From the NCBI GenBank assembly GCA_944390115.1, contig CALXOW010000015.1, positions 1-61,302 of the forward strand: 61,302 nt of DNA, written 5' to 3'. The notes below the pieces were generated by a model. The model was not told the origin of the DNA. It saw only the letters and a program-made list of their open reading frames with translations, and ran no database searches. Source of the stretch: an uncultured Anaerobiospirillum sp. Its GTDB lineage: Bacteria > Pseudomonadota > Gammaproteobacteria > Enterobacterales > Succinivibrionaceae. The position numbers and the translations under genes were made by a program. This document shows positions 11,415 to 54,003 of this stretch, piece by piece (position 1 is the stretch's first letter; every line of letters starts with the position of its first letter).

Positions 11415-12686
11415 TTAAGATGCGCAGGCCTGCGCTTCGACGTCTGAGTGACACTTATGATTCATCATGCCCCAAATGAAGCCTGATAACTCGCGGGCTA
11501 CTGCAGCAATTGCAACATTGCGCTTTTTGCCCATACGGATCATATGATCGAACTTGCTCTTGAGTCGGTAGACTGCCTTATCGGCGTAGTTAATCACATG
11601 CTCTGGTTTGCCTTGTTGGCGCCTCTTAAGCTTTAAGCCTTTAGCAGATTTAGCACCACGCACAATGCATTGAGCCGCCTCGATTAACTCTTTGCGAAGG
11701 TGCTGGTTGCCGCTTTTGGTTAACCCGGTAGCAACTCTTTTTCCCCCGCTGGAGTACTCTCCTGGCACAAGTCCAAGGAAAGCAGCAAAACGAGGCGCAT
11801 GGTCAAAACGCTTGTAGTCACCGACCTCAACAATACAGCTCAAAGCTCGTTGCTCAGAGATGCCCTTAATGCAGGAGAGATAGCCTACCGCCTCAGCATA
11901 GTCACCACTCTGTGCGAACTCTAAGATGCGCGCATCCAAGCGCTTAATGCGATCTTCGAGATCAGAGAGCAAAGAGAGATACCCATCGAGTGTTTCACGA
12001 TCGATATCTGTTGGCATCTCAAGCTTCTCTAGCCACTGAATGTGGCTTTGAGTCCACTTGGTTTTGCTAAAAGCAAAACCACGACGCGCAACAAACGAGT
12101 TGATGTTCTGCTTGACAGTCTTAGCAAGCTCTTTCTGATCGTCCCGCATGCGGATAAAATCACGCACTCCCTCGTCCTTATCGCTAAGAACGTGAACCTT
12201 GCTGTATTGCTTGTGGAGCAAGCAATCAGCAATTTTGCGAGCATCGAGCTTATCTGTCTTGACCTTGCTGCCACTTGTGGTGGCCATGGTAGTAGGAGCC
12301 ATAATTACGCAGTCAACACCGCGCTTTGCGAGAGATTTATAGAGGCTGTAACCAAGACAGCCGGCCTCATAGGCAACAACAACAGAAAAGGCAGGTGCGT
12401 AACCGAGCTTAGTGCAAATGAGCTCTTTAGCATTTTCTATAAACTTGACTATGGCGTCAGCTGACGGCCGCGTCCTCGCCTCGGAAACAATCCCGTTGTT
12501 TAGCTGTATGGCCTGTGGACCAAAACCAGGCAGGAGTTTTGCGCACAAGTTAAAAGACTCTAAGTGCACATCAGCGCCTACGGCTATACGGAGTTGTTCC
12601 GGCTTGGAGTCTAGTGTCCCCGCATAATTTTGTGGATCCTGATTGTCAGCGCAAATCAAGGCAGAAGGAGTATTGGGCTGTTGCAT
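11415..12686 (-). CDS. IS110-family (DEDD) transposase
   Basis: Recombinase that moves the element, 423 residues. The N-terminal RuvC-like DEDD domain is recognisable from AVGADVH (first Asp), VVAYEAGCLG (Glu) and SKVKTDKLDARKIADCL (the two Asp). The C-terminal Transposase_20 domain shows IKGISEQRALSCIVEVGD, AAFLGLVPGEYSSGGK and TKSGNQHLRKELIEAA, with the expected serine in the SGN region. The frame could extend to 12722, but ATG 12686 has AGAGG at ideal spacing. The gene is intact, so the element may be active. Spacing to the inverted repeats is about 100 nt before and 650 nt after. Confidence 0.95.
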   Translation of the reverse strand: MQQPNTPSALICADNQDPQNYAGTLDSKPEQLRIAVGADVHLESFNLCAKLLPGFGPQAIQLNNGIVSEARTRPSADAIVKFIENAKELICTKLGYAPAFSVVVAYEAGCLGYSLYKSLAKRGVDCVIMAPTTMATTSGSKVKTDKLDARKIADCLLHKQYSKVHVLSDKDEGVRDFIRMRDDQKELAKTVKQNINSFVARRGFAFSKTKWTQSHIQWLEKLEMPTDIDRETLDGYLSLLSDLEDRIKRLDARILEFAQSGDYAEAVGYLSCIKGISEQRALSCIVEVGDYKRFDHAPRFAAFLGLVPGEYSSGGKRVATGLTKSGNQHLRKELIEAAQCIVRGAKSAKGLKLKRRQQGKPEHVINYADKAVYRLKSKFDHMIRMGKKRNVAIAAVARELSGFIWGMMNHKCHSDVEAQACAS

Positions 12687-12789
12687 ATCGACCTCTCTTA
12701 ATCTTAAGAACCACAGCGGCAACCAGAGTCTCCTAAGGAATGAGCTCAGACCCCAGTATAGCCGCTGAGGAAACGAAAAGAATCACGAG

Positions 12790-12802
12790 ACGTCACTTCA
12801 TA
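12790..12802. repeat. Subterminal inverted repeat, end upstream of transposase
   Basis: ACGTCACTTCATA, the exact reverse complement of 10754-10766. The stretch 12803-13237 that follows is non-coding and ends in the promoter and ribosome binding site of the next gene. Confidence 0.7.
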
Positions 12803-13090
12803 TTGTCTCAACAAAGTGAAACCAGTCGATTTGAGCGGTGCAAGGCCGAGCCTAAACACGACTGAACCGGCTCATTTTAGTCAAAATACGGGCCAAAGGA
12901 TCATCTTTGAGCATTATGCTCATAGCACGCAGTGCGCCCTGCCAGTGCAAAGACCGTCCCAGGCCCCCTGAGCGCGGCCCGTAGATGACACCTGCCTAGC
13001 ACCTTTGCCCGCATTTGGTGCATTCACCTCACGCCCTAACCACCCCAGCAAAGTGTTAACTTTTGTCAGGTTAAATGGGGCGTTGTGCCG

Positions 13091-13096
13091 TATAAT
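13091..13096 (+). promoter_or_regulatory. Candidate -10 element for the 13238 operon
   Basis: A perfect TATAAT lies 142 bp upstream of the start at 13238. At 17-bp spacing the -35 position reads AGGTTA, which is weak, so the promoter is only a candidate. The following leader would be long. Confidence 0.4.
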
Positions 13097-13237
13097 AAGC
13101 TATGAGGAATAGTTCCTTACCACTTTGAATCCATAGCTTCGCTCGGCGACTTGCTCGACTCTGCAAAGCGACTGACTCAAATTGTTTGGTTCTATGGTGT
13201 ACACCATGACCTTAACCTAAAGCAGGAGAGCTTTGTA

Positions 13238-14041
13238 ATGAGCAACGACGATCCTAAGACCGAACAGCCGGGCTTGATCAGCAGATTATTGGGCTGGCTA
13301 TTTGGCCATAATACCCAAGGCTTAAAGGAGTCCAGTGAGCCAAGCCTTGACCGCCAGATTAGGCAAAATGATCGCTACCTTACTGGAACTGCTGTCGGTG
13401 CTGTTGGTTTGTTTGCTTATTTAGGCAATGTTGATCTTTCTAATTTCAGTCTTGAGTTTTTAATCAATTTTAATTTATATGGTCCGGATTTTAATTCAAC
13501 AATCCAATCATATAGTGAGCTGATTAGAACATCGTGGAGCTCGATTACTGCTGCTGTTTCTCTTTTATTTGCTTGCGCATTTGTTGTTATTCTTGTCGTT
13601 TTTTTTATTAGAGGAGAATGTCTTAATCATCAAGCAAAGAGAGTCGAAGCCAGTCATGATAATGCTAAAACAGAACAAGCTCAACACGAAGTAGAACAGG
13701 CTCAAGCTGAAGCTGCTCACTATCGTGAAAGAGCTGAAAGTGCAGAGTCTGAAGTTGATAAACTTCGTGAAAGATTAACTTTAGTTGAAGCTGAGGCTGC
13801 TCAAAATCTTAATAGAGCAATAAAGGCTGAAACTGAATCTGCTCAAAGTCTCGATAGAGCAACAAAGACCGAAGCTGATAATGTTCAGCTTCGTAAAAAG
13901 CTTGAAAATGTTCAATCTGAAGCCTCAAAGGCTTTTGTTGAACACACTAAAGCTGAGACCGAGCTTGCTAAGGTTAAGGCAGGTGGTGTTAAGTTGCTAT
14001 ATGAAGCCCTTGCTAATAATTTAAACAAAAAAGGCAATTAG
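13238..14041 (+). CDS. Membrane protein with two helices and a long coiled coil
   Basis: Not a family I recognise. From ATG 13238 (AGGAG nine bases upstream) the protein has 267 residues. A hydrophilic N-terminus contains an amphipathic stretch (LISRLLGWLFG). Two predicted membrane helices follow: TGTAVGAVGLFAYLGNV (about 50-66) and ITAAVSLLFACAFVVILVVF (about 105-124). They are separated by a short extramembrane loop (NFSLEFLINFNLYGPDF). The C-terminal 130 residues are a Glu/Ala/Lys-rich coiled coil. The base composition is clearly more AT-rich than the surroundings, which suggests acquisition. The first tiny membrane-peptide gene begins 31 bp after its stop and shares its terminator, so the two are probably co-expressed. 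Confidence 0.8.
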   Translation: MSNDDPKTEQPGLISRLLGWLFGHNTQGLKESSEPSLDRQIRQNDRYLTGTAVGAVGLFAYLGNVDLSNFSLEFLINFNLYGPDFNSTIQSYSELIRTSWSSITAAVSLLFACAFVVILVVFFIRGECLNHQAKRVEASHDNAKTEQAQHEVEQAQAEAAHYRERAESAESEVDKLRERLTLVEAEAAQNLNRAIKAETESAQSLDRATKTEADNVQLRKKLENVQSEASKAFVEHTKAETELAKVKAGGVKLLYEALANNLNKKGN

Positions 14042-14072
14042 TAATTGCTGCATAAGTTGTAAGGAGACTGAA

Positions 14073-14156
14073 ATGGGAATTGTTACTGTTCTTGTATTAT
14101 TTTTAATGTGCCTTTTGGCGTTTTTTGGTCTATTGCGCGCTCTTCGTATTAGATAA
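14073..14156 (+). CDS. 27-residue membrane peptide, array 1 copy A
   Basis: A tiny gene with a strong ribosome binding site (AAGGAG, eight bases before ATG). The peptide starts MGIVTVLVLFLMCLL and ends FFGLLRALRIR: a single hydrophobic helix with a positively charged tail, so the C-terminus should lie in the cytoplasm. It is the first of five copies of the same peptide family in this locus, which is strong evidence that it is a real gene despite its size. It follows the coiled-coil membrane protein by 31 bp and is followed by a strong terminator. Function unknown; size and layout recall type I toxin peptides. Confidence 0.8.
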   Translation: MGIVTVLVLFLMCLLAFFGLLRALRIR

Positions 14157-14162
14157 TATCTC

Positions 14163-14207
14163 AAATAGAGCTGACGTTTTTTATTGTTGGCTCTATTTTT
14201 TTTTTTT
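14163..14207 (+). terminator. Rho-independent terminator after copy A
   Basis: AAATAGAGC pairs perfectly with GCTCTATTT and is followed by a run of T. It ends the two-gene unit formed by the coiled-coil protein and peptide A, so the later copies need their own promoters or read-through. Confidence 0.85.
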
Positions 14208-14280
14208 GTGATGTGAGTTTGATTTGGGATTACCTATTTTATAACGAACAAATGAGCCGCTCAAAACTGAGGTGGTAACA

Positions 14281-14355
14281 GTGATAGTTGTGTTTGCATT
14301 AGCTGCATTGGGTTTTATCCCAATTATTGGCTTTCTTTATACCGCCAAGTGGTAA
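14281..14355 (+). CDS. 24-residue membrane peptide, array 1 copy B (variant family)
   Basis: A GTG start is preceded by GAGGTGG. The peptide begins MIVVFALAALGFIPIIGF and ends LYTAKW. It is one hydrophobic helix with a kinking proline and a Lys-Trp end, a different subfamily from copies A and D-G. An eight-codon frame (MSRSKLRW, ATG at 14251) stops three bases before the GTG and covers the Shine-Dalgarno, suggesting translational coupling. Copy C is a relative of this gene. Confidence 0.6.
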   Translation: MIVVFALAALGFIPIIGFLYTAKW

Positions 14356-14418
14356 ACCCCATTGGGAACAGAGAAAGCCCTAAAACTGAAAAGAAGCAGT
14401 ATAGTACGGGGTGTTAAT

Positions 14419-14505
14419 ATGTTTTTTGTTGGCGTGTTAGTGGTTTTAGGGATTTGTCCCTATTCTTGTTTTTTTAGCTACTTCCAAGTGGTAAATCACA
14501 AGTAA
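14419..14505 (+). pseudogene. Membrane peptide copy C, relative of B with a frameshift
   Basis: As read, ATG 14419 encodes 28 residues beginning MFFVGVLVVLGICP. Skipping one C at the CCC near 14458 restores the ending PILVFLATSKW and a stop at 14494, which matches the FIPIIGFLYTAKW ending of copy B. So copy C is homologous to copy B with a one-base insertion. It may be a pseudogene, or the longer hydrophobic product may still be made. GGGG lies nine bases upstream of the ATG. Confidence 0.55.
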
Positions 14506-14510
14506 GACAC

Positions 14511-14546
14511 ATGGTTGAAAACCGTTTTGCGCTAAAACTATTGTGA
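14511..14546 (+). CDS. 11-codon leader frame before copy D
   Basis: Encodes MVENRFALKLL. Its TGA stop overlaps the Shine-Dalgarno (TGAGG) of peptide D, ten bases before that start. Almost the same leader (MVANSFALKLL) precedes copies F and G, and a variant precedes E, so the frame appears conserved as protein. Probable role: coupling translation of the membrane peptide to ribosomes leaving the leader. Inference only. Confidence 0.35.
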   Translation: MVENRFALKLL

Positions 14547-14555
14547 GGCAACTCT

Positions 14556-14639
14556 ATGGGACTTGCTACTGCTATTGTTTTATTTTTAGCTTGTTTGATT
14601 GTGCTTTTGGGCTTTATGCGCGCTCTTCGTATTAGATAA
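14556..14639 (+). CDS. 27-residue membrane peptide, array 1 copy D
   Basis: Starts MGLATAIVLFLACLIVLL and ends GFMRALRIR. Same length, same hydrophobic span and same basic tail as copy A. GTGAGG lies upstream and overlaps the leader stop. It is the first member of the regular 246-bp repeat series (starts at 14556, 14801, 15048 and 15294). Confidence 0.8.
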   Translation: MGLATAIVLFLACLIVLLGFMRALRIR

Positions 14640-14800
14640 CGCGTTCTTAGCGCTGGCAGGGCGAGGAGCAGCGCGCTTATCGCGCAGGCCTTGTTTCAAG
14701 CCGCACCTGGACTCCGGCTAAGCCCAAGTTGTGGATAGCGGCCCTGATTGAGCGCATGGTTGACAATAGTATTGCCTTAAAACTTTGCGGGGTTAACTCT

Positions 14801-14884
14801 ATGGGGATTGCCACTGTTGTTGTGTTGTTAATAATGTGCTTTGTGGTGTTTTTTGGTATATTGCACATTTTTCGCGTTAGATAA
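14801..14884 (+). CDS. 27-residue membrane peptide, array 1 copy E
   Basis: Starts MGIATVVVLLIMCFVVFF and ends GILHIFRVR. The leader frame beginning at ATG 14756 has lost its stop (TTG TGA became TGC GGG) and runs in frame into this gene, so a 42-residue fusion is also possible. GCGGGG serves as Shine-Dalgarno for the internal ATG. Confidence 0.75.
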   Translation: MGIATVVVLLIMCFVVFFGILHIFRVR

Positions 14885-15001
14885 ACACGTTCGTAGCGCT
14901 GGCCGGGTGAGGGGCAGCGCGCTTATCACGCAGGCCTTGTTTCAAGCCGCATCAGGACCTCGGGTAAGCCCAAAGTGCGGAAGGCGGCCCTGATTGAGCG
15001 C

Positions 15002-15037
15002 ATGGTTGCAAATAGCTTTGCGCTAAAACTCTTGTGA
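15002..15037 (+). CDS. 11-codon leader frame before copy F
   Basis: Encodes MVANSFALKLL and stops at the TGA that forms part of the TGAGGT Shine-Dalgarno of peptide F. Best-preserved example of the leader. Confidence 0.35.
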   Translation: MVANSFALKLL

Positions 15038-15047
15038 GGTTGACTCT

Positions 15048-15131
15048 ATGGGAATCGCGACTGTTCTTGTATTGCTATTGTTATGCATTGTTGCGTTTTT
15101 TGGCATAATGCGCGCCTTTCGTATTAGATAG
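15048..15131 (+). CDS. 27-residue membrane peptide, array 1 copy F
   Basis: Starts MGIATVLVLLLLCIVAFF and ends GIMRAFRIR. Same architecture as copies A, D, E and G. Codon third positions differ between copies while the amino acids are kept (for example GGA ATC GCG against GGG ATT GCC), which supports selection at the protein level. Confidence 0.8.
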   Translation: MGIATVLVLLLLCIVAFFGIMRAFRIR

Positions 15132-15293
15132 CACGCTCTCAGCGCATGCAGGGCGAGGGACAGCGCGCTTATCGCGCGGGCCTTGTTTCAAGCCGCATCA
15201 GGACCTCGGGTAAGCCCAAAGTGCGGAAGGCGGCCCTGATTGAGCGCATGGTTGCAAATAGCTTTGCGCTAAAACTCTTGAGGAGTCAATTCT

Positions 15294-15377
15294 ATGGGAA
15301 TTGCCATTGTTGTTGTGTTGTTAATAATGTGCTTTGTGCTGTTTTTTGCCTTCTTGCATCTTATTCGCGTTAGATAG
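15294..15377 (+). CDS. 27-residue membrane peptide, array 1 copy G
   Basis: Starts MGIAIVVVLLIMCFVLFF and ends AFLHLIRVR. In its leader one G of the TGTGAGG stop region is missing, so the leader frame reads past the start in another register. A GAGGAG Shine-Dalgarno remains. It is the last complete copy; the sequence after it resembles a decayed spacer. Confidence 0.75.
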   Translation: MGIAIVVVLLIMCFVLFFAFLHLIRVR

Positions 15378-15553
15378 CACGTTCGCAGCGCTGGTAGGGT
15401 GAGAGGCCGTGCGCTTATCGTGTGAGCCTTACTTTAGCTAAGCTCTCTTGGCTGAGGGGTAGCATGCGCGGTTGGCGTAGGCCACCTAAGGCGCTCCTTT
15501 GAGGCTCTTTTGGTGTGGGGCGCTACGTCAACTTTGCTTAACGCCCAAATACT

Positions 15554-15587
15554 AAGGGGAGCTGGCGCGTCGGCGCCAGCTCCCCTT
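15554..15587. terminator. Terminator between array 1 and glgP
   Basis: AAGGGGAGCTGGCGC pairs perfectly with GCGCCAGCTCCCCTT around a GTCG loop. It sits between two converging units and can end glgP transcription from the right and array transcription from the left. Confidence 0.75.
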
Positions 15588-15654
15588 AAGTTTCGGGCCC
15601 CACTCGATGGGTGGGGCGGCTGAGCGTGAGCTCAGCTTTTAGCTTCTGGTGGTG

Positions 15655-18243
15655 CTAGTCGTTCTTGACGTCGCAGCTCTTGAGCGACCAGATGTTGTGG
15701 ACGTAGTCCTCAATCGAGCGGTCCGACGAGAACTTGCCCATCGAAGCGGAGTTGATGATCGCAGCACGGGCCCAACGAGCCTTGTCCTGGTACATCTGCT
15801 CCACGCGCTTGTGAGCCTCACGGTAGGAAGCAAAGTCGGCTAAGACTAAGAATGGATCACCCTTCTCTAAAAGAGCCTTCTTGATGCTCGAGAGGGCACC
15901 TGGCTCACCTGGAGTGAAGTAGTCCGTGTCGAGCCAATCTAAGCAAGCCTTGATCGTCTCATTGCTGTTGTAGTAGTCCCAAGGATTGTAACCTTGTGCC
16001 TTTAAGGCCTGAACCTCTTCCACCGACAGACCGAAGATGAAGTTGTTTTCCTCACCAGCCTCAGCCACGATCTCGATGTTGGCACCGTCCATAGTACCTA
16101 AGGTTAAAGCACCGTTCATCGAGAACTTCATGTTCGAGGTACCCGAAGCCTCGTAGCCTGCGGTCGAAATCTGCTCGGAGATATCGGCAGCTGGGATAAT
16201 CTTCTCGGCCAGCGATACACGGTAGTTAGGCAAGAACACAACCTTTAACTGGTTGCGGATGCGGTGATCGTTGTTGATGCGATCGGCTACCTTGTTGATG
16301 GCAAAGATGATGTCCTTGGCTAAGGTGTAGGCTGGAGCGGCCTTGGCACCAAAGATAAAGACCTGAGGTACGATGGTCTTGGTAGGGTCGGCTAACAGCT
16401 CACGGTACAGCGATAAGATGTAGAGCAGATTTAAGTGCTGACGCTTGTACTCGTGTAAGCGCTTGACCTGAACGTCAAAGAGCGCATGTGGGTCAACCTC
16501 AACGCCGGTCAACTTCTTGATCTCGACGGCTAAGGCTTGCTTGTTCTTGAACTTGACGTCCATGAAGCGCTGCTGGAACTCTGGCTTGTCAGCATAAGGA
16601 CGCATCAGCGCGCACGACTCTAAGTGCAGCGGCCAATCTGGGCCCGAGACCTCGTTGTAGAGCTCAGCTAAGCCTGGGTTGCAGGCTAAGAGCCAACGAC
16701 GTGGGGTAACACCATTAGTGACGTTGCAGAAGCGATCTGGCCAGATCTGAGCAAACTCAGGGAAGAGCTGCTCACGCACTAACTTCGAGTGGATCTCAGC
16801 TACACCGTTGACACGACGCGAAGCGATAACCGAGAGGTGAGCCATGCGTACCATGCGGCATGGGCCTTCCTCAATAATCGAGAGCTTAGCGCGCATCTCG
16901 TTGTTGTTTGGCCACATGTGGGCAACTTCACCGTCTAAGAAGCGCTCGTTGATCTCGTAGATGATCTCTAAGTGACGAGGTAACAGACGCTCGAAGAGGT
17001 AAACCGGCCACTTCTCTAATGCCTCTGGCAGTAAGGTGTGGTTGGTGTAAGCAAAGACCTCAGTGACGATCTTCCAGGCGCTGTTCCAGCTTAAGCCTTC
17101 CTCGTCTAAGAACAGACGCATCAGCTCAGCTACAGCAATGGCTGGGTGAGTATCGTTTAACTGAATCGCGATCTTGGAGGCAAAGGCCGAGTAATCGTGG
17201 TGGTGCGCACGATTGTAGCGGCGCAGAATGTCACGCAGCGAGCAAGCGCAGAAGAAGTACTGCTGGGTTAAACGCAGCATCTTACCGGCTTCGGTCGAGT
17301 CATTAGGGTATAAAACCTTGGAAATGGTCTCGGCGTTGGCCTTTTCTTCTTGAGCGTCAACATAGCCACCGGCATTGAAGACGTCCCAGTTGAACTGCTC
17401 AGTAGCACGCGACTCCCATAAACGCAGGACGGTGACCGAAGCGCCACGGAAACCAACCACTGGAATATCCCACGGTACACCCTTGATCATGTGCTGAGGG
17501 TGCCATACCTTGTGGATGGTGCCATCAGGGGCGGTCTGAACCTCAACATAACCACCGATCGGGATGTTCTGAATGGACTCAGGACGGCAGACTTCCCAAG
17601 GGCAGCCGTACTCACGCCACGAATCAGGACGCTCGACCTGACGACCACCACGGATTTCCTGACGGAATAAGCCGTTCTCGTAGTGGATGCCGTAGCCAAT
17701 CGATGGGTACTTCAAGGTAGCCAGGGAGTCGATATAGCAGGCAGCAAGACGGCCTAAGCCACCGTTACCTAAAGCCATATCAGGCTCTTCATCGCACAGC
17801 TCGTTGATGTCGATACCTAAGGAGGCTAAAGCTTCCTTGCAGGTATTGTAAACCTCGAGGTTGCACAGATTGTTAACGGTCAGGCGGCCCATTAAGAACT
17901 CAGCCGACAGGTAGTTAACCGCACGCGTATCGTTGGAAGCGTGGGTGGCCTGAGTCTGAGTTAAGCGCTCAAAGACCAGCTCATTGACGGCATAGACCAC
18001 GGCTTGCCACCAAGCGAGGTTCGAGGCCTTCTTCTCGGAGGTACCGATGGTACGACGTAAGTGCTTGATGATGCTGTCTTTGAATTGCTCAACGGATGGC
18101 TTAAAGAAGTCACCGCGTTCTTGCTCTGGGGCTAAAGCAGCGCACTGAGGGGCAGGAGCTGGAGCAGCAGGAGCGGCAGCAACCCCGGCAGGGGCGGCCT
18201 TAACTGCTGAGCTGATACCTTTCTTGGAATGCTTGCTTGCCAT
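15655..18243 (-). CDS. glgP: Glycogen/maltodextrin phosphorylase
   Basis: Releases glucose 1-phosphate from alpha-1,4-glucans using phosphate and pyridoxal phosphate; cytoplasmic. From ATG 18243 (GGAGG five bases upstream) it has 862 residues against about 815 in E. coli GlgP. The surplus is an Ala/Pro-rich N-terminal tail of about 50 residues. Family landmarks: NYLSAEFLMGR, ALGNGGLGRLAACYIDSLA, the GVTPRRWL region, and EASGTSNMKFSMNGA with the cofactor-binding lysine, followed by TLGTMDGANIEI. No other glycogen genes are adjacent, so it is expressed alone. Confidence 0.97.
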   Translation of the reverse strand: MASKHSKKGISSAVKAAPAGVAAAPAAPAPAPQCAALAPEQERGDFFKPSVEQFKDSIIKHLRRTIGTSEKKASNLAWWQAVVYAVNELVFERLTQTQATHASNDTRAVNYLSAEFLMGRLTVNNLCNLEVYNTCKEALASLGIDINELCDEEPDMALGNGGLGRLAACYIDSLATLKYPSIGYGIHYENGLFRQEIRGGRQVERPDSWREYGCPWEVCRPESIQNIPIGGYVEVQTAPDGTIHKVWHPQHMIKGVPWDIPVVGFRGASVTVLRLWESRATEQFNWDVFNAGGYVDAQEEKANAETISKVLYPNDSTEAGKMLRLTQQYFFCACSLRDILRRYNRAHHHDYSAFASKIAIQLNDTHPAIAVAELMRLFLDEEGLSWNSAWKIVTEVFAYTNHTLLPEALEKWPVYLFERLLPRHLEIIYEINERFLDGEVAHMWPNNNEMRAKLSIIEEGPCRMVRMAHLSVIASRRVNGVAEIHSKLVREQLFPEFAQIWPDRFCNVTNGVTPRRWLLACNPGLAELYNEVSGPDWPLHLESCALMRPYADKPEFQQRFMDVKFKNKQALAVEIKKLTGVEVDPHALFDVQVKRLHEYKRQHLNLLYILSLYRELLADPTKTIVPQVFIFGAKAAPAYTLAKDIIFAINKVADRINNDHRIRNQLKVVFLPNYRVSLAEKIIPAADISEQISTAGYEASGTSNMKFSMNGALTLGTMDGANIEIVAEAGEENNFIFGLSVEEVQALKAQGYNPWDYYNSNETIKACLDWLDTDYFTPGEPGALSSIKKALLEKGDPFLVLADFASYREAHKRVEQMYQDKARWARAAIINSASMGKFSSDRSIEDYVHNIWSLKSCDVKND

Positions 18244-36353: not shown

Positions 36354-36425
36354 TTAACTTGCGGCGTAGATCAGAAGCGCGAAGACTGCGATCAGCGTTC
36401 CAATGCTGAAAGCGACCATGAGCAT
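36354..36425 (-). CDS. 23-residue membrane peptide, array 2 copy 4
   Basis: Last gene of the array. It starts MLMVAFSIGTLIAVFA and ends LLIYAAS. It keeps the length and the SIGTL core, but lacks the Asp-Trp pair seen in the other three. AAGAGGAGACTGACA precedes the ATG, the same ribosome binding site sequence as copy 1. It ends about 38 bp before the shared terminator. Confidence 0.75.
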   Translation of the reverse strand: MLMVAFSIGTLIAVFALLIYAAS

Positions 36426-36455
36426 TGTCAGTCTCCTCTTAACTGCTTGACGGCG

Positions 36456-36527
36456 TTACCTGGCGGCCCAGTCTAAAATCAAGAAGACTACGACCAGCGT
36501 ACCTAAAGAAAATAACACCCCGATCAT
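36456..36527 (-). CDS. 23-residue membrane peptide, array 2 copy 3
   Basis: Starts MIGVLFSLGTLVVVFLI and ends LDWAAR. It differs from copy 2 by one conservative residue (Val for Ile), although several codons differ synonymously (TTA/TTG, GGT/GGC, CTG/TTA), a sign of protein-level selection. AGAGAGG lies nine bases before the ATG. Confidence 0.8.
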   Translation of the reverse strand: MIGVLFSLGTLVVVFLILDWAAR

Positions 36528-36558
36528 TGTGGATTCCTCTCTTAACTGCTTGACGGCG

Positions 36559-36630
36559 TTATCTAGCGGCCCAGTCCAAAATCAAGAAGACCACGATTAA
36601 CGTGCCTAAAGAAAACAACACCCCGATCAT
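36559..36630 (-). CDS. 23-residue membrane peptide, array 2 copy 2
   Basis: Starts MIGVLFSLGTLIVVFLI and ends LDWAAR: one hydrophobic helix, then Asp-Trp and a terminal Arg. Ribosome binding site AAGAGG. The 31-bp spacers on both sides share the sequence ACGCCGTCAAGC. Confidence 0.8.
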   Translation of the reverse strand: MIGVLFSLGTLIVVFLILDWAAR

Positions 36631-36661
36631 TGTGGATTCCTCTTTTGATAGCTTGACGGCG

Positions 36662-36733
36662 TTAGCGCGAGGCCCAGTCTAAGACTAGGAATACCGCGAC
36701 CTGTGTGCCTAAGGTGAAAAGCATCATGATCAT
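36662..36733 (-). CDS. 23-residue membrane peptide, array 2 copy 1
   Basis: First gene of the array in the direction of transcription. It starts MIMMLFTLGTQVAVFLV and ends LDWASR. AGAGGAG lies eight bases before the ATG. All four genes are exactly 72 nt, have a period of 102-103 bp, and should be read from one transcript. No family is recognised; candidates by analogy are small subunits or regulators of a membrane complex, or membrane-active peptides. Confidence 0.8.
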   Translation of the reverse strand: MIMMLFTLGTQVAVFLVLDWASR

Positions 36734-53000: not shown

Positions 53001-53940
53001 CATCTGGGCTGAGACCACTTACCACATGCAGGCCCTGCGTGATAACCCAAGCTGCGCCAAAGAAGAGTTTGAAGACAAGGGCGACGCTCAAGATCCAGGC
53101 TTGTTCTACCAGCTTAGCTTCAACAACGAAGAGAATATCGCCGCCCCATTTATCGGCACGGGCGCTCAGCCTAAGGTTGCGATTTTACGTGAGCAGGGCG
53201 TCAACTCGCAGGCCGAGATGGCTCACGCCTTTACCCGTGCGGGCTTTAGCGCGGTTGATGTCCATATGTCCGAGATTTTATCGGGTGAGGTTAGCCTCAA
53301 GGACTTCATGGGCTTTGCCGCCTGCGGTGGTTTCTCTTACGGTGACGTCTTAGGTGCTGGTGAAGGCTGGGCTAAGTCCATCCTCTTCAACGAGCGCGCT
53401 AAGAGCGAGTTCGAGGCCTTCTTTAACCGCAAGGACACCTTTGCCTTAGGTGTCTGCAACGGCTGCCAGATGATGTCGACTCTGCGTGACTTAATCCCAG
53501 GCGCTGCCCTGTGGCCACGCTTTGTTACCAACAAGTCCGAGCGCTTTGAGGCCCGTTTTGTCGAGGTCGAGATCCAAAAGAGCCCATCGATCTTCTATGC
53601 CGGTATGGAAGGCTCGCAGCTGCCGATCGTGGTATCTCACGGTGAGGGCCGCGCTGAGTTCAAGAACGACGAGCACTTACAGCAGCTCGAGGCTGCGGGC
53701 TTAGTAGCCTTACGCTACATCGACCACTATGGCAAGGTCACCGCTCGTTACCCAATGAACCCGAACGGCTCGCCAAACGGCATCACCTCGGTCACCACCG
53801 AGGATGGTCGCTTCACCATTATGATGCCGCACCCAGAGCGTGTGGTTCGCACCTGCGCTAACTCCTACCACCCAGATGACATGGGTGAGTTCAGCCCATG
53901 GATGCGCCTCTTTGCTAACGCGCGCCGCTTCATCGGCTAA
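50044..53940 (+). CDS. purL: Phosphoribosylformylglycinamidine synthase
   Basis: Fourth step of purine synthesis: FGAR, glutamine and ATP give FGAM. The 1298 residues match the single-chain proteobacterial enzyme (E. coli 1295). The N-terminal linker domain is followed by two AIRS-like halves with [53 protein letters not shown] and [18 protein letters not shown]. The C-terminal class I glutaminase has [14 protein letters not shown] with the catalytic Cys, and a His-Pro-Glu triad in [10 protein letters not shown]. The final codons are part of a 22-bp tandem repeat. Cytoplasmic; monocistronic. Confidence 0.98.
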
Positions 53941-54003
53941 CACGCGCCGCTTCATCGGCTAACGCGCGCCGCTTCATCGGCTAACGCGTCCGGCTAACGC
54001 ATC
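53914..54003 (+). repeat. 22-bp tandem repeat spanning the purL stop
   Basis: GCTAACGCGCGCCGCTTCAT plus CG occurs three times in a row (53914, 53936 with one change, 53958), followed by two truncated copies at 53980 and 53993. The first copy is the last seven codons of purL. The others lie after the stop, so the coding end has been duplicated into the 3' region. Confidence 0.9.

What the first reader, a model, noticed from the sequence alone, without database searches (positions are those of the whole stretch)
14073..15377. Array of tiny membrane-peptide genes in repeats (array 1)
Five genes encode 27-residue peptides of one family (MGIATV-type start, hydrophobic helix, RALRIR/IFRVR-type basic end). 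Four sit in regular 246-bp repeats, and two related genes of another subfamily lie between the first and second copies. Each has a Shine-Dalgarno sequence, and copies differ mostly by conservative residues and synonymous codons, so selection acts on the peptide. The layout recalls tandem type I toxin loci (ldr, ibs) but the sequences do not. No antisense promoter is visible, so a type I toxin-antitoxin role is only one hypothesis; others are regulators of a membrane complex or phage-defence effectors.
Basis: partly seen in the sequence, partly recalled or inferred. Interest (0 to 1): 0.88.

Follow-up and report, generated by a model that had tools for sequence, protein, structure and literature searches.

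The report
Tandem tiny membrane-peptide genes, Anaerobiospirillum
A gut bacterium carries a row of five related genes, each encoding a 27-residue greasy membrane peptide, next to a larger membrane protein; it looks like a new, lineage-specific cousin of known tandem toxic-peptide genes, but its toxicity and its control are untested.

Summary
The array is real: five 27-codon ORFs (14073-15377, +), four of them 245-247 bp apart, plus two ORFs of a second subfamily. The sister genome that could be named is an uncultured Anaerobiospirillum. The peptides look translated: substitutions keep hydrophobicity better than any of 5000 neutral simulations and avoid second codon positions. Selection holds the membrane-helix character, not the sequence: 45 amino-acid changes against 50 expected. 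Spacers are more conserved than synonymous sites in 5 of 6 (non-independent) pairs. Upstream lies gene A (267 aa, membrane plus coiled coil). A second gene A/tiny-peptide pair lies at another locus, with gene A broken there in both genomes. The array was found in 2 of 11 held genus genomes; the one other match below E 0.01 in the family was rejected. Gene A to peptide 2 is AT-rich and mostly near-identical between the two species; the array tail differs (three units against one). An unrelated four-copy array lies at 36354-36733. Most likely: type I-toxin-like membrane peptides with conserved regulatory leaders. No antisense promoter common to all units, no known family and no plausible antitoxin RNA were found. 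Main rival: partner peptides of gene A.

The parts
13238..14041 (+). Gene A: 267 aa, inferred membrane helices followed by a long coiled-coil-like helix; no family assigned; AT-rich (39.8% GC)
   Evidence: low-confidence model; 802/804 nt identical in G003
14073..14156 (+). Peptide 1, 27 aa, 31 nt after gene A
   Evidence: 84/84 nt identical in G003
14163..14198 (+). Terminator-like hairpin with T run after peptide 1; a similar stretch follows the peptide at the second locus (read by eye)
   Evidence: 8 such sites found in 12700-15800 against 4.0 expected
14281..14355 (+). Second-subfamily peptide 2a, 24 aa, GTG start; relative of the peptide at the second locus (39-43% identity)
14419..14505 (+). 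Second-subfamily ORF 2b, 28 aa; second half related to 2a only in another frame; identical in G003
   Evidence: (D6)
14510..14548 (+). Leader block before peptide 2, repeated before peptides 3-5
   Evidence: D4: 69-87% identity
14556..14639 (+). Peptide 2, 27 aa
   Evidence: 83/84 nt identical in G003
14640..14800 (+). GC-rich spacer/leader (56.5% GC)
14801..14884 (+). Peptide 3, 27 aa
14885..15047 (+). GC-rich spacer/leader; in 11 genus genomes strong matches only at this locus, in G000 and G003
15048..15131 (+). Peptide 4, 27 aa
15132..15293 (+). GC-rich spacer/leader, 146/162 identical to the preceding spacer
15294..15377 (+). Peptide 5, 27 aa
15378..15430 (+). Truncated start of a further unit (53 nt)
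   Evidence: D3, 79%

Best explanation
Each unit makes a 27-residue peptide that inserts as one helix in the inner membrane with its arginine-rich end in the cytoplasm (inferred from the positive-inside rule). The locus is probably an acquired membrane module (gene A plus tiny peptide) whose peptide gene was copied in tandem with its leader. The peptides most likely act like tandem type I toxins (Ldr, Ibs, Zor): kept silent by the conserved leader/spacer RNA, or by an antisense RNA made from it, and harmful or membrane-modulating when released. Shown: ORFs, repeats, a substitution pattern that keeps hydrophobicity, slow spacers, restricted distribution. Inferred: translation, membrane insertion, RNA control, toxicity.
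For: Open, equal-length ORFs with mostly good SD sites. Hydrophobicity change at or below the observed value in 0 of 5000 neutral simulations; substitutions by codon position 32/14/35, p=0.008. [quoted passage not shown] Spacers differ less than synonymous sites in 5 of 6 pairs (Fisher p 0.0075 to 4.7e-5; pairs not independent), as expected if the non-coding part carries control. In PMC4147584 (passages) three of four Ldr repeats are in tandem and Ibs/Sib is a repeat found five times.
Against: No antisense promoter-like site is common to the six units scanned; weak ones (8 of 12) are shared by peptide 5 with G003's third copy and by the two orthologous peptide-2 units; one search lists a 9-of-12 minus-strand site at 14264-14236. 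No Rfam match at gathering score in the window except tRNAs, and three chance-level ones (E 1.2-2) in 13000-15700, one of them a thermometer family at 15212-15299 with 19 bits against a gathering score of 88. Leader folds are not exceptional (z +1.36 to -1.42). Against mononucleotide shuffles, spacers give z +0.2 to -1.7 on the plus and -1.1 to -2.1 on the minus strand. Slow spacers could reflect gene conversion. No expression or toxicity data. At the second locus the peptide ORF stays open although gene A is broken.
Confidence: 0.42

Rival explanations
1. The peptides are partners or regulators of gene A: gene A is a membrane-anchored coiled-coil protein and the tiny peptides assemble with it or tune it; extra copies give dosage or variants.
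For: Gene A and peptide 1 are 31 nt apart and followed by one terminator-like hairpin; the same order recurs at a second locus in both species. Both gene A and the peptides were found in the same 2 of 11 genus genomes.
Against: At the second locus gene A is broken in both species by different lesions while the peptide ORF stays open. The units of peptides 2-5 have no gene A copy.
Confidence: 0.27
2. Secreted leaderless bacteriocin-like peptides made from tandem genes.
For: Several related tiny cationic peptides in a row; leaderless bacteriocins are a known class (search listing and abstracts). The second module lies beside a macB-like exporter gene and a TolC-like gene lies about 6 kb before the array (names recalled).
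Against: Very low hydrophobic moment and an uncharged 20-residue hydrophobic core, as in a membrane anchor. No transporter frame directly beside the array.
Confidence: 0.07
3. The functional element is the GC-rich spacer RNA or DNA; the ORFs are incidental.
For: Spacers differ less than synonymous sites in 5 of 6 pairs.
Against: Hydrophobicity-preserving substitutions and second-codon-position constraint; no stops or indels in the 8 copies; peptide 1 lacks the long spacer.
Confidence: 0.08
4. Ordinary small membrane proteins (such as subunits of respiratory or transport complexes), recently duplicated, with no toxic or regulatory role.
For: Many small prokaryotic proteins are single-helix membrane proteins (PMC10903887, abstract).
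Against: No family match above cut-off; no partner operon of known function beside the array; no match at E 0.01 or better in 9 of 11 genus genomes.
Confidence: 0.16

Closest known systems
Ldr/Rdl (Fst/Ldr family) type I toxin-antitoxin, E. coli
   Same: Tandem direct repeats, each with a tiny hydrophobic peptide; cationic C-terminus in the cytosol (PMC4147584 and PMC8309996, passages)
   Different: 35 aa, not 27; no Pfam match here; each Ldr repeat also encodes an antisense RNA, for which no promoter-like site common to the units is seen
Ibs/Sib type I toxin-antitoxin
   Same: Repeat in several copies (140 nt, five in E. coli MG1655) with a very short hydrophobic peptide (passages)
   Different: 19 aa; Sib overlaps the whole ibs ORF; no Rfam match here
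Zor/Orz type I toxin-antitoxin
   Same: 29-aa hydrophobic peptide found with search parameters including tandem duplication (passage)
   Different: No sequence match and no Orz-like RNA found
DinQ
   Same: 27-aa membrane peptide (passage)
   Different: The review lists DinQ among toxins without a positively charged C-terminus; no family match here

Membership tests
Membrane-associated type I toxin | Under 60 aa, hydrophobic, one predicted TM helix | tested here: met
   27 aa; mean Eisenberg-type hydrophobicity 0.87-0.98 over the first 20 residues; no TM predictor was run
Membrane-associated type I toxin | Cationic residues usually at the C-terminus | tested here: met
   Net charge +2 to +3, all arginines within positions 22-27
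Membrane-associated type I toxin | Antisense or trans RNA antitoxin | tested here: inconclusive
   No antisense promoter-like site common to the units, no plausible Rfam match; no RNA data
Membrane-associated type I toxin | mRNA structure hiding the ribosome binding site | tested here: inconclusive
   z-scores +0.47, +1.36, -0.96, -1.42, +0.39 for five leaders
Membrane-associated type I toxin | Toxic when overproduced | not testable with these tools
   Needs an induction experiment
Ldr/Fst, Ibs, TisB, Zor and other named toxin families | Match to the family's sequence model | tested here: not met
   No Pfam or NCBIfam match above cut-off; weak hits (best E 0.39 and 0.54) are to other families. 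That these libraries hold models of the toxins is recalled
Leaderless bacteriocin | Amphipathic cationic peptide (feature recalled) | tested here: not met
   Hydrophobic moment 0.02-0.12 over the first 20 residues
Known anti-phage defence system | Match to a PADLOC model | tested here: not met
   No match for the eight peptides scanned; gene A gave 16 matches at E up to 1, best 8.2e-5 (HEC-07), which I take for coiled-coil similarity

The most novel reading that the evidence does not exclude
A mobile two-part membrane module, unrelated to any family searched: a coiled-coil membrane protein plus tiny companion peptides that are multiplied in tandem and free to diversify in sequence as long as they stay membrane helices, while the leader RNA between them is held constant as the real control element. 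The tail of the array turns over between sister species faster than most of its flanks.
Probability: 0.2. Interest if true: 0.75.

Novelty: new variant of a known kind. Interest (0 to 1): 0.52.

Why it matters
Genes this short are often missed in annotation. If confirmed, this gives a natural case of tandem membrane-peptide genes in which selection holds hydrophobicity and the leader but hardly the peptide sequence. It would make testable whether such arrays are dosage devices, toxin families or partners of a larger protein. Two unrelated arrays within 61 kb of one genome suggest that small-peptide arrays may be under-counted in gut bacteria.

Tried and rejected
Rejected: the match in G036 (L007, E 0.0042 and 0.0091) is antisense to a 206-aa frame that resembles a Sua5/YciO protein (name recalled). 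The match in G001 (L133, E 0.027) to the second subfamily lies out of frame in a larger frame. The other weak matches, in 46 genomes, were not inspected. The gene A match in G095 covers residues 114-185 only, which I take for coiled coil.

Led nowhere: phage, plasmid and viral-contig searches with gene A or its N-terminal alignment and with peptides (the two tblastn peptide searches used peptide 3 only); solved-structure sequences; the fold of gene A (pLDDT 63.4, pTM 0.28), too poor, so no fold search was made; promoters common to the units (the one 10-of-12 plus-strand site common to peptides 3, 5 and G003's third copy lies inside the coding part); spacer and leader folding. Literature: searches showed no paper on such arrays in Anaerobiospirillum. 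Several lists were capped (15 of 440, 12 of 1,484, 5 of 829, 10 of 93); (Anaerobiospirillum with toxin-antitoxin) gave 2 papers, seen as listing only, on other organisms. PMC11264685 was seen as abstract and outline only. DOI 10.1093/nar/gkq054 is not held. Script one search failed on a file name and was redone; the starts given for the three G003 peptides were one base off, put right.

Full report
OBSERVATION. The window holds five 27-codon ORFs at 14073, 14556, 14801, 15048 and 15294 on the + strand, with start spacings 483, 245, 247 and 246. TRF reports 14510-15420, period 246, 3.7 copies. M1 G2 V8 L9 C13 R25 R27 are invariant in the five. Between peptides 1 and 2 lie two ORFs of another subfamily: 14281-14355 is open with a GTG start; 14419-14505 is open, but its second half is related to the first only in another frame, and it is identical in the sister genome.

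NOT CHANCE. A scan for neighbouring, similar, SD-preceded tiny hydrophobic ORFs (ATG starts) found 17 pairs in the window, all in two arrays. It found 0 pairs in 20 stretches (400 kb) of the same genome, 0 in 20 stretches (400 kb) of one control genome of another family, and 0 in each of 20 order-2 Markov windows. Single tiny ORFs of this kind are not rare: 11 in the own stretches and 24 in the control. The own sample is about 11% of the genome, so further unrelated arrays are not excluded.

ARE THE PEPTIDES REAL? Six distinct coding copies (five here, one from G003) were placed on a minimum spanning tree and compared with 5000 neutral simulations. Amino-acid changes, 45 against a mean of 50.0, are not clearly reduced (fraction 0.10), and no stop is expected in 23% of runs. 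The summed change in hydrophobicity, 64.8 against 157, was reached by none. Substitutions fall 32/14/35 on codon positions 1/2/3 (p=0.008); of the 14 second-position changes 11 are T/C, 2 G/C and 1 G/A. So the hydrophobic helix is kept, hardly the sequence. NG86 dN/dS between non-orthologous copies runs 0.18-1.06, on few sites.

SPACERS. The three complete spacers here and the one in G003 are 83-90% identical, while coding identity of the same units is 68-87%. Synonymous differences exceed spacer differences in 5 of 6 pairs (p from 0.0075 to 4.7e-5); the exception is peptides 3 and 5, p=0.45. The pairs are not independent. The units are mosaics: peptide 5's coding part is nearest to peptide 3, its spacer to peptide 4. 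Either the spacer is constrained or gene conversion keeps it alike; I cannot separate these. In 11 genus genomes the spacer has strong matches only at this locus in G000 and G003. Its GC content is 56.5-58%, against 34.5-40.5% for the peptide genes.

CONTEXT. Gene A (13238-14041, 267 aa, 39.8% GC) ends 31 nt before peptide 1, and a terminator-like hairpin follows the peptide. Its matches in Pfam, NCBIfam, PADLOC and PHROGs stay below the curated cut-offs where there are any and are mostly to coiled-coil or membrane proteins (best E 2.8e-6, Pfam Borrelia_P83). A second copy of the pair, gene A', a 23-aa peptide and what by eye is a similar hairpin, follows a macB-like gene in both genomes; in G003 the next gene is pepT-like, while in G000 the contig ends shortly after (gene names here and for glgP, der and the chemotaxis receptor are recalled from the sequences). 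There gene A' lacks its 5' part in G000 and is frame-shifted in G003, while the peptide ORF is open in both with two amino-acid differences. The 23-aa peptide is 39-43% identical to peptide 2a.

DISTRIBUTION. Strong peptide matches: 2 of 98 genomes examined, G000 itself and G003; 49 of 98 had some match at E up to 1, the other 47 weak (best 0.0042). With a six-row profile, 3 of 57 family genomes matched at E up to 0.01: G000, G003 and the rejected G036. Gene A: 3 of 98, namely G000, G003 and a partial match in G095. Of 395 order genomes only G000 matched; G003 was evidently not drawn. Peptide 2a's family has strong matches only in G000 and G003 of 11. The glgP end was found in 11 of 11 genus genomes. 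Flanks of the 9 others were fetched, four of them only 231-504 bases because of contig ends; no tiny ORF like the array peptides was seen in them. In G009 the next long frame after glgP is the chemotaxis-receptor gene, about 0.4 kb away.

SPECIES COMPARISON. Three core genes upstream of the locus are 93-96% identical between G000 and G003. From 12810 to 14639 the ten blocks compared are 98.4-100%, except 14157-14280 at 88%. glgP beyond the array is 99.2%, so the high identity is not confined to the module. The array tail differs: three further units against one, with coding identity 68-81% and spacer identity 86-89% to the G003 unit; the 200 bases after it are 87%. At the second locus the module is 98.6% against 95.0% for its flank. 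This fits recent exchange between the species of a block with AT-rich, probably foreign, DNA, with a fast-changing tail; other histories are possible.

MECHANISM. An uncharged hydrophobic core with arginines at the end predicts one inner-membrane helix, tail inside. Size, charge and tandem layout are what membrane type I toxins share (PMC8309996, PMC4147584; passages). Against membership: no family match, no antisense promoter common to the units, no plausible antitoxin RNA. I therefore say that it may work like a tandem type I toxin locus and do not file it as one. The main rival, peptides as partners of gene A, rests on the repeated gene order and is weakened by the loss of gene A' with the peptide kept.

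ARRAY 2. On the minus strand, 36354-36733 holds four tandem 23-codon ORFs of another hydrophobic family at 102-103-bp spacing. At E up to 0.1 it occurs in the same two of 11 genus genomes, with five matches in G003.

Noticed in passing
window 36354-36733 (-): A second, unrelated array: four 23-aa hydrophobic ORFs at 102-103-bp spacing beyond the 3' end of a der-like gene, on the other strand; five matches in G003, none at E up to 0.1 in the other 9 genus genomes.
   Followed up: partly
window 11415-12722 (-): IS110-family transposase (NCBIfam NF033542, E 1.4e-52) before the module; the alignment with G003 starts only at 12807, so the element appears absent from that spot there.
   Followed up: partly
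L118 1957-2592: In G003 a 211-aa frame repeats the C-terminal part of the der-like protein, beside an extra array-2 peptide.
   Followed up: no
L053 2001-2534, L054 2131-2907: Second gene A/tiny-peptide module after a macB-like gene; gene A broken in both species by different lesions.
   Followed up: yes
window 53914-53988: 22-bp tandem repeat, 3.4 copies, across the end of the 1298-aa purL-like frame (gene name recalled).
   Followed up: no
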